From: a bacterium
GTDB lineage: Bacteria > Caldisericota > Caldisericia > UBA6126
Assembly: GCA_021372585.1 (NCBI GenBank)
Contig: JAJFUD010000056.1
Coordinates: 1 to 39,820, forward strand
DNA: 39,820 nt
Direction: 5' to 3'
Shown here: positions 34,342-39,003 of the stretch, piece after piece
How the letters are laid out: the number at the start of each line of letters is the position of its first letter
How positions within the stretch are numbered: position 1 is the first letter of the stretch
The notes under the pieces: model-generated
Database searches by the model: none
What the model was told of the DNA's origin: nothing
What the model saw: the letters and a program-made list of their open reading frames with translations, nothing else
Translations under genes and position numbers: made by a program

Positions 34342-35487
34342 ATGAAAAAATTGATTTCATTTCTATCTGTTTTGTGTATAGCGTTTCTTGCTTTAGTGCC
34401 ATCCTTCACTGTTTTAGCAGCAGAGACGAAAGTATTTCTGAAACCCGTCGAAGAAAAAATTTATTCTGATACTGAATTCGGCATCCAGATTCATATTCAA
34501 GAAGTTGAAAAACTTTGGGCTATGGGATTAGATGTCATCTATGACGTCGAAAAAGTAGCCTTTTTAAGGGCGGAACAAGGCAATTTCCTCTCTTCAGATC
34601 AGACAACCGTACTAATGCCTATCAGGAATAGAGAAGATGAAGGCAGAATCGTGTTTGGAATCTCCAGAACCAAAGACTCACCAGGTATGGATGGAACAGG
34701 CATCGTGGCTACCTTTATCTTCAAGGCTCTGGCAACCGGGGATACTGTGTTGGGGATTGACAACCTTATTCTGAAAGACCCTGCATTAATGGATATCAAG
34801 TCCAAATCTGAAGCGTTGAACCTGACGATTCTGGAAAAAGATATCGATCCCCCGGTATTAACTGTGGAACCAGTCCCTCCGACATATGCCGAAAAAGCAA
34901 CCATCATCGGAAAAACAGAACCAAAAGCGATCGTAAAAGTGGATGACAGAGAAGTTACCATTGAAGACGATGGTTCTTTTAAATACGAAGTCACCTTAAA
35001 AGCCGGTGACAATCTTTTTACCATCACCTCCCAAGATAAAGTCGGCAATATCACTAAAGTGTCTCTTACCATCACGAGAAAAAAGCCAGTCATTATTCAG
35101 CTGACCATTGGCAAAAAACAAGCCTTTGTAAACGGTCTGTTAGTACCGATTGATGCGCCTCCTTTTATTGACAAAGCTTCCGGCAGAACCTTAATTCCTA
35201 TTCGTGTCATCGTGGAATCGATTGAAGGACAGATTAACTGGGAAGCAAAAGAACAAAAAGTCACGATCATAAAAGACAATATTATGATAGAGCTTTGGAT
35301 CAACAAACCTATTGCTCAAATCAATGGCATTCCAACCCCTATCGACATTCAGTCTCCAAAATTGGCTCCTAAGATTGTGGCCGGAAGAACATTCCTTCCT
35401 TTGCGGTTTGTAGCTGAAAATCTCGGAGCAGAAGTGGGTTATGAGGCAAAAACACAAACCATTACTGTCACTTACCCGAAGTTATAA
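34342..35487 (+). CDS. secreted protein with cohesin-like, Ig-like and stalk (CuAO-N) domains
   Basis: A 381-residue exported protein. Residues 1-26 are a signal peptide (MKKLISFLSV..., cleavage near LAA-ET). Residues 30-165 resemble a cohesin/carbohydrate-binding beta sandwich (VYDVEKVAFL-like strand, GRIVFGISR, GIVATFIFKAL). Residues 170-247 are an Ig-like bacterial repeat (IIGKTEPKAIVKVDDREV, AGDNLFTITSQDKVGN). Residues 250-380 are paired CuAO-N repeats (RTLIPIRVIVESI, RTFLPLRFVAENLGAEVGY). It probably acts in cell-surface adhesion or scaffolding; no catalytic site is seen. GGAGG precedes the ATG, 44 bases after tRNA-Ala with no promoter visible between. It shares the stalk module with the large protein at 37-3492. 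Confidence 0.85.
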   Translation: MKKLISFLSVLCIAFLALVPSFTVLAAETKVFLKPVEEKIYSDTEFGIQIHIQEVEKLWAMGLDVIYDVEKVAFLRAEQGNFLSSDQTTVLMPIRNREDEGRIVFGISRTKDSPGMDGTGIVATFIFKALATGDTVLGIDNLILKDPALMDIKSKSEALNLTILEKDIDPPVLTVEPVPPTYAEKATIIGKTEPKAIVKVDDREVTIEDDGSFKYEVTLKAGDNLFTITSQDKVGNITKVSLTITRKKPVIIQLTIGKKQAFVNGLLVPIDAPPFIDKASGRTLIPIRVIVESIEGQINWEAKEQKVTIIKDNIMIELWINKPIAQINGIPTPIDIQSPKLAPKIVAGRTFLPLRFVAENLGAEVGYEAKTQTITVTYPKL

Positions 35488-35500
35488 TATCCAACCCATT

Positions 35501-35536
35501 AAACCCTCCCATGACTTGTTCCTGGGAGGGTTTTTC
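35501..35536 (+). terminator. rho-independent terminator
   Basis: AAACCCTCCC (35501-35510) pairs perfectly with GGGAGGGTTT (35524-35533) around a 13-base loop and is followed by Ts. It is the clearest intrinsic terminator in the window. Its 3' arm contains the only Shine-Dalgarno-like sequence upstream of priA. Confidence 0.9.
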
Positions 35537-35541
35537 ATTTG

Positions 35542-37545
35542 ATGAGAACCGTTAGCGTTATTGTTGAGGATTTTCCTCTTCTCAGTGAATTTTTGTTTCC
35601 TTACCAGATCCCAGACAATTTTGCTGAAAAGATTCAGTTCGGATCCATACTATTAGTCCCATTTGGTTTACATAACCAGCCAAGACTTGGTTTTGTTGCT
35701 GGATTTGAGCAAGAAACGCCGACAGAAACAGAGGTTAAACCAATCTATCAAGTAGTGATCCCGACAACCATATCCAAAGCACAATTTCGAACAATTCAAG
35801 CCTTTGCTATATTTCATCAGGTACCAATTTCAAAACTTTTAGCCTGGGGCGGATTGTATCCTAAAAAGGCTCAACCTGATCTTTATTATGTACCGACGAT
35901 AGACTCAGAAGACTCCTTGATTGGTTTTCGGAATACGAAAGCACTGTTTCGATACCTCTCAAAACATCAGGAAAAGATTCATCCGGTATTGTTTAGAAAA
36001 CGTTTCCGCTTAACCAAAAACACGACGATCTTAAAAAAACTGGAGAACAGAGGGTTACTGACCAGGTTGTATTCTTCAGAACCGGTTGTATTCCAGACCC
36101 GAGAATCTTGTACACCCAGTCCGAAAACCTGGGTGTTGAATGGTTTGACACAGAAAGAACGAGTCAAGGTCTATATCCAATACATCCAAATCGGGCATTT
36201 GAAACGGGTATTGGTTGTAACACCCAATCAGATTACCCAGAGAGAGATCCAAGATCAAATCAACCATGCGGTCACTGGAGCTACTATACATTATGGCTCA
36301 AAGATAGATCTCCTGAAATATGACACTCCTTGGGATGCAGTCATCGTTGAAAACAGTACAAGCCAGGAATATCAGATAGAGATGCCATTTTCTTTCCACC
36401 ATGAAAAAATCGCTTTTATCAGAAGCAGGGTGGAAGGCTTCCATCTTATTCTGGGTAGTTACCTTCCTTCGCTGTTTAGTTTTCAAAAAATCAGAAGCGG
36501 ATCATTACATCATATCTCTAAAAATATTGAGCGCCGGCAGTCCCATCCGAAAATAATTATCCGTTCGATGAATCAAGAAATCAGGACACACGGATTTCAT
36601 TTGATTCCTTTTACGTTACAGGGAGAGATGGACAGAGCCTTCAAATCAGGGAAAAAAATAGTATTGCTGCTCAATCGAAAAGGATATGCCAATATTTTAT
36701 TATGTCAGCATTGCTCATCCCTGGTGCTGTGCCCGAAATGTGAATCTCCCATGACTCTTTTTTCAGATAAGAAAATCATTCGATGTAAAAATTGCGGATA
36801 CCAGTCTGAGTTCTCTCCAACTTGCTCCCAGTGCGGAAAAAATGCTATCAAGCTATCCAGTTTTGGTACAGAAAGGCTGGAAGAAGAAGCGAGAAGAAGA
36901 TTTCCCTATATGCATACGATCAGGATCGATAGAAACCAAGCGCCCCCGACAGAGGAAGACCTTGAACAATCTCATTTGATTATAGGTACTACCCTTACCC
37001 TAAACCGGGTATGTTGGGACGATATCGACTTTTGCTGTATTCTGGGGATTGATGCCAGAATGAACTATCCTGTTTATCATAACCAGGTGGATATTTTTTA
37101 CCTGTTCTCCCAGCTTTCTGAAAAACTCGTTACGTCAACAGAGGATCGAAAAAAAATTCTTGTCTTTTCATTTACCCCTATGGCAGAAATTTTTCAATGG
37201 TTGACCCCTTCGAGATTTCCCCTCTTTTTTTCCAGTGAGCTAAAAGTAAGAAGTGAATTGCAATACCCTCCCTTCACTCATTTATTAGAATGGAGGATTC
37301 AATCAAAAGAAGTGGCTGATTTACAAGCTGAACTAAACTCTCTGCGCTCATTTTTTTCCGGTTTGCCAGATAAAGTAGTCCCTATTCTTTCCCGAATAGA
37401 GAAAATCCGGGAAGATAGGTATGCATGCAGAATCCAGTTTAAAACCAGGAATTTATGGAATCTGTCACATTTTTTTCGGGTAAGGATTGATGAATTAAAG
37501 AAAAATGAGAAAATAGTGTTTGATGTAAAAAAATGGGAGTGGTAA
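35542..37545 (+). CDS. priA: PriA-like primosomal protein with lost helicase motifs
   Basis: A 667-residue protein that reads as PriA from end to end. The N-terminal DNA-binding part is followed by a remnant helicase, LLNRKGYANILLCQHC, four CxxC zinc pairs (about 388-432), GTERLEEEARRRFP and the C-terminal ELQYPPFTHL. The ATPase motifs are gone. Where GVTGSGKTEVY is expected there is GLTQKERVKVY; VDEEH is VENSTS; LGSATPS is LGSYLPS; IGTQMIAKG is IGTTLTLNR; and QVAGRAGR is QLSEKLVTS. The frame is intact, so this is a changed protein rather than a pseudogene. It may load the replisome without unwinding, as proposed for PriA of Deinococcus and actinobacteria. Start ATG 35542; TTG precedes it. 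Heads priA-def-fmt. Confidence 0.88.
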   Translation: MRTVSVIVEDFPLLSEFLFPYQIPDNFAEKIQFGSILLVPFGLHNQPRLGFVAGFEQETPTETEVKPIYQVVIPTTISKAQFRTIQAFAIFHQVPISKLLAWGGLYPKKAQPDLYYVPTIDSEDSLIGFRNTKALFRYLSKHQEKIHPVLFRKRFRLTKNTTILKKLENRGLLTRLYSSEPVVFQTRESCTPSPKTWVLNGLTQKERVKVYIQYIQIGHLKRVLVVTPNQITQREIQDQINHAVTGATIHYGSKIDLLKYDTPWDAVIVENSTSQEYQIEMPFSFHHEKIAFIRSRVEGFHLILGSYLPSLFSFQKIRSGSLHHISKNIERRQSHPKIIIRSMNQEIRTHGFHLIPFTLQGEMDRAFKSGKKIVLLLNRKGYANILLCQHCSSLVLCPKCESPMTLFSDKKIIRCKNCGYQSEFSPTCSQCGKNAIKLSSFGTERLEEEARRRFPYMHTIRIDRNQAPPTEEDLEQSHLIIGTTLTLNRVCWDDIDFCCILGIDARMNYPVYHNQVDIFYLFSQLSEKLVTSTEDRKKILVFSFTPMAEIFQWLTPSRFPLFFSSELKVRSELQYPPFTHLLEWRIQSKEVADLQAELNSLRSFFSGLPDKVVPILSRIEKIREDRYACRIQFKTRNLWNLSHFFRVRIDELKKNEKIVFDVKKWEW

Positions 37546-37546
37546 A

Positions 37547-38056
37547 TTGAAAATTATAACTTATGGGAGTCCTATGCTTAGGAAAAAAGCAAAATCCGTA
37601 GACAGGATTACCAAAGAGATAAAAGAATTAGTATTTGAAATGTTGAATATCATGAGAACGGGAGAAACCAAAGGAGTTGGCTTAGCTGCCCCACAGGTTG
37701 GATTTTCTCACCGTATATTCATCATGGAGCCTGAGCCTGAATCCGTATATTTTTTTGCTAATCCGGAAATAATCAATCTTGGTGAAACAGAAACAGATAC
37801 GGAAGGATGTCTGAGCGTTCCCGGCGTGTATGCTAAAATTAAACGCGCCAAACACATTGAGCTCAGGGCTATCAACATTTTAACCGGTAAGAAAATCATC
37901 CTTGATGCCATAGGTTTTCCAGCAAGGATCATTCAACATGAAAATGACCATCTAAATGGCGTTTTATTTACCGACTATATCGATAATTGGGATGATTTTG
38001 AGATCTATAACCTCTCCAAAGTACCAACCCAACTTAAAGGAAGATTTCAAAAATGA
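37547..38056 (+). CDS. def: peptide deformylase
   Basis: A 169-residue metalloenzyme that removes formyl from new N-termini. All three motifs are present: GVGLAAPQVG, EGCLSVPG (metal Cys) and QHENDHLNG (HExxDH). The start is TTG at 37547, one base after the priA stop, behind GGGAGTGG; the frame has no earlier alternative and KIITYGSPMLRKKAKSV is the usual beginning. It overlaps fmt by four bases, the standard def-fmt pair. Confidence 0.96.
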   Translation: MKIITYGSPMLRKKAKSVDRITKEIKELVFEMLNIMRTGETKGVGLAAPQVGFSHRIFIMEPEPESVYFFANPEIINLGETETDTEGCLSVPGVYAKIKRAKHIELRAINILTGKKIILDAIGFPARIIQHENDHLNGVLFTDYIDNWDDFEIYNLSKVPTQLKGRFQK

Positions 38057-39003
38057 AAACAGGCTTTTTTGGTTCTAGCAACTTTTCGATTCCTTTTTTA
38101 GAAGTTCTGAAGGAAAAAACGGATATAACATTAGTCATTACGACAGAAGATCAACCCAAAGGACGGGGGCAGAAAGTCATCTCTAATCCGGTGAAGTGCA
38201 TTGCCCAGGATGCAGGAATCCCGGTAATCACTCCTCTCAATCTCAATGATGCAGGCTTTCAGCAAATATTTCGTTCGTATCAGCTGGATTTTGTCATCAC
38301 TGCTTCTTACGGTAAAATCATCCCGAAATCCTTGTTGTCTCTGTCACGCCTAGGCTTTTATAACTTGCATCCATCCCTTCTCCCGGATTATCGGGGAGCA
38401 GAACCCATTTTTTGGCAAATTGCGCATGGTGTTCCAGAAGCAGGCATATCACTCTTTAAAATGACTCCGGAATTGGATGCCGGGGATATAGTTGACCAAG
38501 CTTCTTTTCCGATTGCTGACAATGATAATTATGCAGCTGTAGAGGCAAATGCGATTCGAACCGGTATCGTTTTGCTCAGAAAAATGTTGGAAACGCTCCA
38601 AGCTAACCAACCTCTTCCATTACATCCACAAAACCACTCTTCAAAGCCTTTATTTTACGCCAGGAAAATTACATACCGGGATGAAGAGATTAATTGGAAA
38701 CAACCTGCAGAGATCATCCACAATCAAATTCGTGCATTCTCTCCCCAGACAGGAGCTTACACAATTTTAAGTGGAAAACGCCTGAAAATTATGGAATCGA
38801 AGAAGACTACCCAAAAAGCGATGGAATCTCCCGGTACATTATTGTTACAAGGCAAAAAACTATTTGTTGCTTCGATGGATTATTATCTAAAGATTGACAT
38901 GGTAAAGCCGGAGGGGAAAAGCCTAATGAAATCAGAAGATTTTATTAATGGTTACCTGACTAAAGAACAGCATCTCGTTTTTAGTTCCTCTTCCAATCGG
39001 TAA
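38053..39003 (+). CDS. fmt: methionyl-tRNA formyltransferase
   Basis: Fmt formylates initiator Met-tRNA using 10-formyl-THF. The 316-residue sequence has GFFGSSNFSIPFLEVL, the ASYGKIIPKSLL and NLHPSLLPDYRGAEPI motifs with the catalytic Asn-His-Asp, and LDAGDIVDQ. The C-terminal OB fold starts near 205. ATG overlaps the def stop (ATGA); GGAAG lies upstream. rsmB, the next gene in most Bacillota, is absent; instead a convergent gene overlaps the last 23 bases. Confidence 0.96.
   Translation: MKTGFFGSSNFSIPFLEVLKEKTDITLVITTEDQPKGRGQKVISNPVKCIAQDAGIPVITPLNLNDAGFQQIFRSYQLDFVITASYGKIIPKSLLSLSRLGFYNLHPSLLPDYRGAEPIFWQIAHGVPEAGISLFKMTPELDAGDIVDQASFPIADNDNYAAVEANAIRTGIVLLRKMLETLQANQPLPLHPQNHSSKPLFYARKITYRDEEINWKQPAEIIHNQIRAFSPQTGAYTILSGKRLKIMESKKTTQKAMESPGTLLLQGKKLFVASMDYYLKIDMVKPEGKSLMKSEDFINGYLTKEQHLVFSSSSNR

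What the first reader, a model, noticed from the sequence alone, without database searches (positions are those of the whole stretch)
35542..37545. PriA that has lost every helicase motif but is otherwise intact
The frame is full-length and open, with conserved zinc cysteines, the LLNRKGY and GTERLEEE segments and the YPPFTH C-terminus. Yet Walker A, DEEH, the GSATPS motif, IGTQMIAKG and QVAGRAGR are all replaced. A parallel is known for PriA of Deinococcus and actinobacteria, where it is thought to act as a loader without ATPase activity. In a clostridia-like genome this would be independent loss and imply a changed replication-restart pathway.
Basis: partly seen in the sequence, partly recalled or inferred. 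Interest (0 to 1): 0.7.

Follow-up and report, generated by a model that had tools for sequence, protein, structure and literature searches.

The report
Phylum-wide PriA without helicase motifs
The only copy in this bacterium of PriA, a protein that restarts stalled DNA copying, has lost the parts that burn ATP and unwind DNA; so has every relative examined in its phylum, so it most likely works as an engine-less docking platform, as already shown for Deinococcus.

Summary
Window 35542-37545 (+) is an intact 667-aa PriA (TIGR00595 E 7e-52; AlphaFold model pLDDT 86.8; nearest solved structure is PriA on fork DNA). All eight zinc cysteines are present, but Walker A, DEEH, GSATP, GTQMxAKG and QxxGRxGR are replaced. 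It is neither a local quirk nor clostridial: the window lies in phylum Caldisericota, class Caldisericia. All 39 distinct PriA proteins recovered from both classes of the phylum lack these motifs, while 71 homologues outside it keep them. The window's genome has no second PriA. Purifying selection is clear (dN/dS about 0.1-0.3). The Walker lysine has become an invariant arginine in Caldisericia (34/34) and glutamine in the second class (5/5). Lys-to-Arg is the change published for Deinococcus-Thermus, and it abolishes ATPase in E. coli PriA. DnaD and DnaC/DnaI were not found. DnaB is in 54/54 genomes, DciA in 50/54; RecG and a UvrD-type helicase are present. Best explanation: an ATP-independent fork-binding platform that helps reload DnaB, probably with DciA. 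It is a new, ancient, phylum-wide case of the known PriA pseudohelicase. The invariant arginine and the link with DciA are the new, testable points.

The parts
35542..37545 (+). priA-like gene, 667 aa, PriA pseudohelicase
   Evidence: open frame; NCBIfam and PDB sequence hits; AlphaFold model and Foldseek match to PriA over its whole length
35542..35856 (+). N-terminal 3'-DNA-binding domain, about residues 1-105 (Y21, G34, P40 invariant in Caldisericia)
   Evidence: PF17764 hits 18 of 22 aligned members, though not this one; invariant columns; boundaries are approximate
36139..36165 (+). former Walker A (motif I), residues 200-208 NGLTQKERV; Arg207 sits at the catalytic lysine (E. coli K230)
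   Evidence: ungapped alignment with E. coli PriA; Arg in 34/34 Caldisericia, Gln in 5/5 of the second class; in the model residues 204-217 are helix, so no phosphate loop
36349..36363 (+). former motif II (DEEHD), residues 270-274 ENSTS
   Evidence: (E. coli D320 aligns with E270)
36454..36468 (+). former motif III (GSATP), residues 305-309 GSYLP
   Evidence: (S356 aligns with S306)
36703..36837 (+). cysteine-rich zinc region, C388, C391, C397, C400, C415, C418, C428, C431
   Evidence: PF18319 E 4e-5; seven of the eight cysteines invariant, C400 nearly so
36982..37008 (+). former motif V region, residues 481-489 IGTTLTLNR (E. coli IGTQMLAKG); Thr483 kept
   Evidence: T483 invariant in 19 Caldisericia sequences
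37111..37134 (+). former motif VI (QVAGRAGR), about residues 524-531, QLSEKLVT; both arginines lost
   Evidence: (R584 aligns with K528, R587 with T531)
37258..37542 (+). C-terminal domain starting near LQYPPFTH (P576, P577 invariant)
   Evidence: PF18074 E 0.003, 12 of 22 members
37547..38056 (+). def, peptide deformylase, directly downstream of priA
   Evidence: PF01327 E 4e-46
38053..39003 (+). fmt, methionyl-tRNA formyltransferase, overlapping def by 4 bases
   Evidence: PF00551 and PF02911

Best explanation
The gene encodes the sole PriA of its cell, a pseudohelicase. Shown by sequence: the PriA domain set and fold are kept, the zinc region is intact, the ATP site is dismantled, and the protein is under purifying selection; the same state holds across the phylum. 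Inferred: it binds abandoned replication forks through its N-terminal DNA-binding domain and the remains of the helicase lobes, without ATP. It then acts as a landing platform that helps put the DnaB ring back on, probably together with the DciA-type loader, since no DnaC/DnaI or DnaD was found. Any clearing of the lagging strand would be done by a separate helicase such as RecG or the UvrD-type enzyme, or would not be needed. The former Walker lysine is now a fixed arginine, so that site was probably kept for a structural role rather than left to drift.
For: Single PriA in G000. All motifs absent in 39 distinct PriA proteins of two classes, against 71 homologues outside the phylum: GTQM in 71, DEEH in 70, GSATP in 70. 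Zinc cysteines, Y21, G34, P40, R570, P576 and P577 invariant. dN/dS 0.18 for priA against 0.13 for def and 0.08 for fmt in the same genome pair; 0.08-0.34 in other pairs. Model pLDDT 86.8, pTM 0.85, best matches PriA bound to fork DNA and to ADP. Walker Lys replaced by Arg in 34/34 Caldisericia; the same change is reported for Deinococcus-Thermus and abolishes ATPase and helicase activity in E. coli PriA, while D. radiodurans PriA still binds forks and DnaB (PMC4504706). DciA in 25/25 high-quality genomes, DnaB in 54/54, no DnaD over the cut-off, DnaC/DnaI model hits look like DnaA-sized or IS21 IstB proteins. RecG, Mfd and a UvrD-type helicase present.
Against: No biochemistry; binding to forks, DnaB or DciA is inferred. 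An acidic residue is often kept at motif II, so weak nucleotide binding is not excluded. Two relatives with DciA, G015 (96% complete) and G019, show no PriA at all, so it may be dispensable in one family. Absence of loaders rests on family models that could miss very divergent proteins.
Confidence: 0.8

Rival explanations
1. The protein kept the PriA fold but has left replication restart and serves another purpose, for example as a structural or regulatory DNA- or SSB-binding protein.
For: Only 16 residues are invariant across Caldisericia, and sequence identity between families is about 20%. The SSB tip that PriA normally recognises is altered in the window's own order.
Against: The domains that define PriA as a primosome organiser (3'-DNA-binding domain, zinc region, C-terminal domain) are the conserved ones, the gene sits directly upstream of def and fmt as a housekeeping gene, and D. 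radiodurans PriA with a similar loss still binds forks and DnaB (PMC4504706).
Confidence: 0.1
2. A divergent but still active ATPase: the motifs are unrecognisable yet the enzyme still hydrolyses ATP.
For: The lobes still fold as in PriA; an acidic residue is often kept at motif II and IGT at motif V.
Against: The phosphate loop is helical in the model, the lysine is Arg or Gln everywhere, and both motif VI arginines are gone. K230R alone abolishes ATPase in E. coli PriA (PMC4504706).
Confidence: 0.04
3. A decaying pseudogene, or a sequencing or assembly artefact.
For: Catalytic motifs are missing from a metagenome-assembled genome.
Against: Intact frames in all full-length loci but one with a TGA (G023), dN/dS well below 1 along the gene, the same losses in 39 distinct proteins including G020, which is a single closed-size contig of 1,558,103 bases.
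Confidence: 0.01
4. A second, complete PriA exists and this copy is a relaxed paralogue.
For: G000 is 97.7% complete, so about 2% of genes may be missing; one relative (G021) has two PriA matches, the second not inspected.
Against: TIGR00595 in G000 finds only this gene plus RecG, Mfd and other helicases. The same holds in relatives above 95% completeness, and selection is not relaxed.
Confidence: 0.03

Closest known systems
PriA pseudohelicase of Deinococcus radiodurans and the Deinococcus-Thermus phylum (PMC4504706)
   Same: PriA domain architecture with motor motifs lost across a phylum; Walker A lysine replaced by arginine; organisms with DciA (control genomes Thermus composti and Deinobacterium chartae ring for DciA).
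   Different: Different phylum; here the losses span motifs I, II, III, V and VI, and the second class has Gln rather than Arg. The Deinococcus sequences themselves could not be fetched, so the comparison rests on the paper's text.
Motif-poor PriA of Actinomycetota (NCBIfam PRK14873 models)
   Same: PriA without a recognisable helicase motor (own knowledge: UniProt caution note; not tested here); DciA is the DnaB partner in mycobacteria (PMC5720831).
   Different: The Caldisericota proteins score far better with the canonical PRK05580 models (best 1e-107) than with PRK14873 (best 9e-36).
Canonical PriA helicase (E. coli, Klebsiella, Bacillota)
   Same: Same fold end to end, zinc region, 3'-DNA-binding and C-terminal domains.
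   Different: ATPase and helicase motifs intact there, all lost here.

Membership tests
PriA family (fold and domain set) | Significant match to PriA profile models | tested here: met
   TIGR00595 E 7e-52 and NF004066 E 3e-59, though below the curated cut-offs; all 22 aligned members match
PriA family (fold and domain set) | Overall PriA fold | tested here: met
   Foldseek ranks 1-9 are PriA structures, E 3e-37, TM-score about 0.7
PriA family (fold and domain set) | Eight-cysteine zinc region inserted in the second helicase lobe | tested here: met
   all eight present, seven invariant in the alignment
PriA family (fold and domain set) | N-terminal 3'-DNA-binding domain (PF17764) | tested here: inconclusive
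   not over threshold in this protein, but in 18 of 22 relatives, and the model aligns over the whole length
PriA helicase (enzyme) | Walker A, DEEH, GSATP, GTQMxAKG, QxxGRxGR motifs | tested here: not met
   all replaced
PriA pseudohelicase (Deinococcus type) | PriA fold with lost ATPase motifs and Walker Lys to Arg | tested here: met
   against the description in PMC4504706
PriA pseudohelicase (Deinococcus type) | No ATP hydrolysis and no unwinding, but binding of ssDNA, forks and DnaB | not testable with these tools
   needs purified protein
PriA pseudohelicase (Deinococcus type) | Maintained by selection as the sole PriA | tested here: met
Actinobacterial PRK14873 PriA | Best match to the PRK14873 models | tested here: not met
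   PRK05580 models win by a wide margin

The most novel reading that the evidence does not exclude
In Caldisericota the dead ATP site of PriA was rebuilt, not just lost. An arginine that replaced the Walker lysine is one of only 16 residues fixed across the class and locks the two lobes in a permanent fork-bound, DnaB-recruiting shape that hands over to DciA. The same change in Deinococcus-Thermus reflects either shared ancestry or convergence tied to DciA-type helicase loading.
Probability: 0.3. Interest if true: 0.6.

Novelty: new member of a known kind. Interest (0 to 1): 0.42.

Why it matters
It adds a deep-branching phylum to the few lineages in which the main replication-restart protein runs without ATP. 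It also gives a natural test of what the PriA motor is for: two classes and seven families have evolved without it while keeping the rest of the protein under selection. The co-occurrence with DciA and the lack of DnaC/DnaI or DnaD suggest that the motor becomes dispensable only with some helicase loaders, which can be tested across phyla. The fixed Arg207 is a single residue to mutate.

Tried and rejected
Frameshift or pseudogene: rejected. A second PriA: none in G000. DnaD (PF07261): 0 of 54 genomes over the cut-off. DnaC/DnaI (PF01695): the stronger hits look like IS21 IstB transposition proteins and the weaker ones like DnaA-sized proteins. PriB: SSB family search gave one SSB gene in G000, next to dnaB, and no extra copy. 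A first alignment was too divergent for the genome scan; a narrower one worked. Papers naming Caldisericota with PriA, or Caldisericum with replication restart: none in the library.

Full report
What is there. The frame at 35542-37545 (+) encodes 667 residues without interruption. It matches PriA models (NF004066 E 3e-59, TIGR00595 E 7e-52, both below the curated cut-offs) and solved Klebsiella and E. coli PriA by sequence (E about 6e-30). Compared with E. coli PriA, motif I GVTGSGKT reads GLTQKERV, motif II DEEHD reads ENSTS, motif III GSATP reads GSYLP, IGTQMLAKG reads IGTTLTLNR and QVAGRAGR reads QLSEKLVT. The eight zinc cysteines, NRKGY and the YPPF start of the C-terminal domain remain.

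Where it comes from. Contigs of relatives in the same class are identical in length and match to named records: G037:C114 is JAGHAO010000086.1, G008:C2 is JALVXB010000002.1, G012:C6 is DHHO01000006.1, G016:C2 is JAIMJY010000002.1 and G031:C20 is JAUXIC010000037.1, all Caldisericota or Caldisericaceae. G020 is a single contig of 1,558,103 bases, the size I recall for Caldisericum exile (own knowledge). The window is therefore class Caldisericia, phylum Caldisericota, in another order or family than the Caldisericaceae.

How widespread. A PriA model was run on all 54 held genomes of the phylum. Every recovered PriA lacks every canonical motif: 60 loci were scanned with none positive, and nine named Caldisericota loci were likewise negative. 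After removing identical proteins there are 39 PriA proteins, 34 from Caldisericia and 5 from a second class. Of 71 homologues outside the phylum, mostly Bacillota, GTQM is found in 71, DEEH in 70 (DEEY in the other), GSATP in 70 and the motif VI pattern in 68 (the strict Walker A pattern missed variants such as GITGSGKT). In the tree, Caldisericia, the second class and the canonical proteins each fall on one side of a branch (supports 98/97, 100/100 and 90/73). One ancient loss in the phylum is the simplest reading; two losses, one per class, are not excluded.

Not decay. Sister genomes G000 and G001 give dN/dS 0.18 for priA, against 0.13 for def and 0.08 for fmt. It is 0.20 in the first lobe and 0.10 in the second with the zinc region. 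Other pairs within the phylum give 0.08-0.34 (several have large dS and are rough). G000 has one PriA; its other TIGR00595 hits include RecG and Mfd, confirmed by NCBIfam at full scores. G021 has two PriA matches; the second was not inspected.

What the site became. Only 16 residues are invariant in 19 aligned Caldisericia sequences: Y21, G34, P40, R207, seven zinc cysteines, G442, T483, R570, P576 and P577. R207 lies exactly at the catalytic lysine of Walker A. It is Arg in 34/34 Caldisericia proteins and Gln in 5/5 of the second class, against Lys in nine canonical sequences. In the AlphaFold model (pLDDT 86.8, pTM 0.85) residues 204-217 form a helix where a phosphate loop would be. Thr483 of motif V is kept; in superfamily-2 helicases motif V usually touches the DNA backbone (own knowledge). 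So the nucleotide site is gone but DNA-contacting features remain, and the old lysine site is constrained rather than drifting.

Published parallel. D. radiodurans PriA neither hydrolyses ATP nor unwinds forks, yet binds ssDNA and forks with affinities near those of E. coli PriA and shows evidence of binding DnaB; in Deinococcus-Thermus the GKT lysine is Arg, and K230R alone abolishes E. coli PriA ATPase and helicase activity (PMC4504706). That paper does not mention Caldisericota, and no paper in the library pairs Caldisericota or Caldisericum with PriA or replication restart. The Caldisericota proteins are much closer to the PRK05580 than to the PRK14873 models, so they do not belong to that second group.

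Partners. DnaB is in 54/54 genomes. DciA is in 50/54 and in 25/25 of the high-quality genomes; in G000 it lies just after recF. DnaD is absent and no DnaC/DnaI-like protein stands out. A UvrD-type helicase is in 52/54. In Caulobacter it has been proposed that DciA works with PriA at forks (PMC9825169). DciA alone does not explain the loss: the control Caulobacter, which rings for DciA, belongs to a group whose PriA is regarded as canonical (own knowledge). At most DciA makes the loss tolerable.

Mechanism. Shown: fold, domain set, loss of the ATP site, selection, single copy, phylum-wide distribution. Inferred: ATP-independent fork binding and recruitment of DnaB, probably with DciA, with other helicases clearing DNA if needed.

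Verdict. It is a new, ancient and phylum-wide member of a known kind, PriA pseudohelicases, with two specific new leads: the invariant arginine and the association with DciA-type loading.

Noticed in passing
G000:C75 (L171, L178:3451-3885:-): The SSB of the window's order ends in EEYDFVPEEIEEI (similar in G001, G002, G005) instead of the usual acidic tip ending in Pro-Phe; other Caldisericia families end in DVPF or DIPF plus one residue, and family f4 ends in EEIPID. PriA and other partners normally bind that tip.
   Followed up: partly
window 35501-35541: A strong terminator-like hairpin with a T run (z-score -3.0) ends 9 bases before the priA start; its 3' arm GGGAGGG could double as the ribosome-binding site. 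The stretch is identical in G001.
   Followed up: partly
window 34342-39003: Between G000 and G001 synonymous divergence is about 0.18 in priA and def but 0.94 in the upstream gene and 0.52 in fmt, which suggests recent recombination across priA-def.
   Followed up: no
genomes G015 and G019 (family f4): No PriA was found by a family model or by the clade's own alignment, although G015 is 96% complete. G015 also lacks a UvrD hit. PriA may be lost altogether there.
   Followed up: partly
G021:C12:11408-12421: A second PriA match in one 74%-complete genome; a paralogue or a mixed bin.
   Followed up: no
G023:C147 (L060) and other G023 and G011 loci: DnaB matches in f4 genomes are split (stop in G023, 892-aa frame in G011 with a gap between two DnaB pieces), which looks like an intein or insertion in dnaB.
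   Followed up: no
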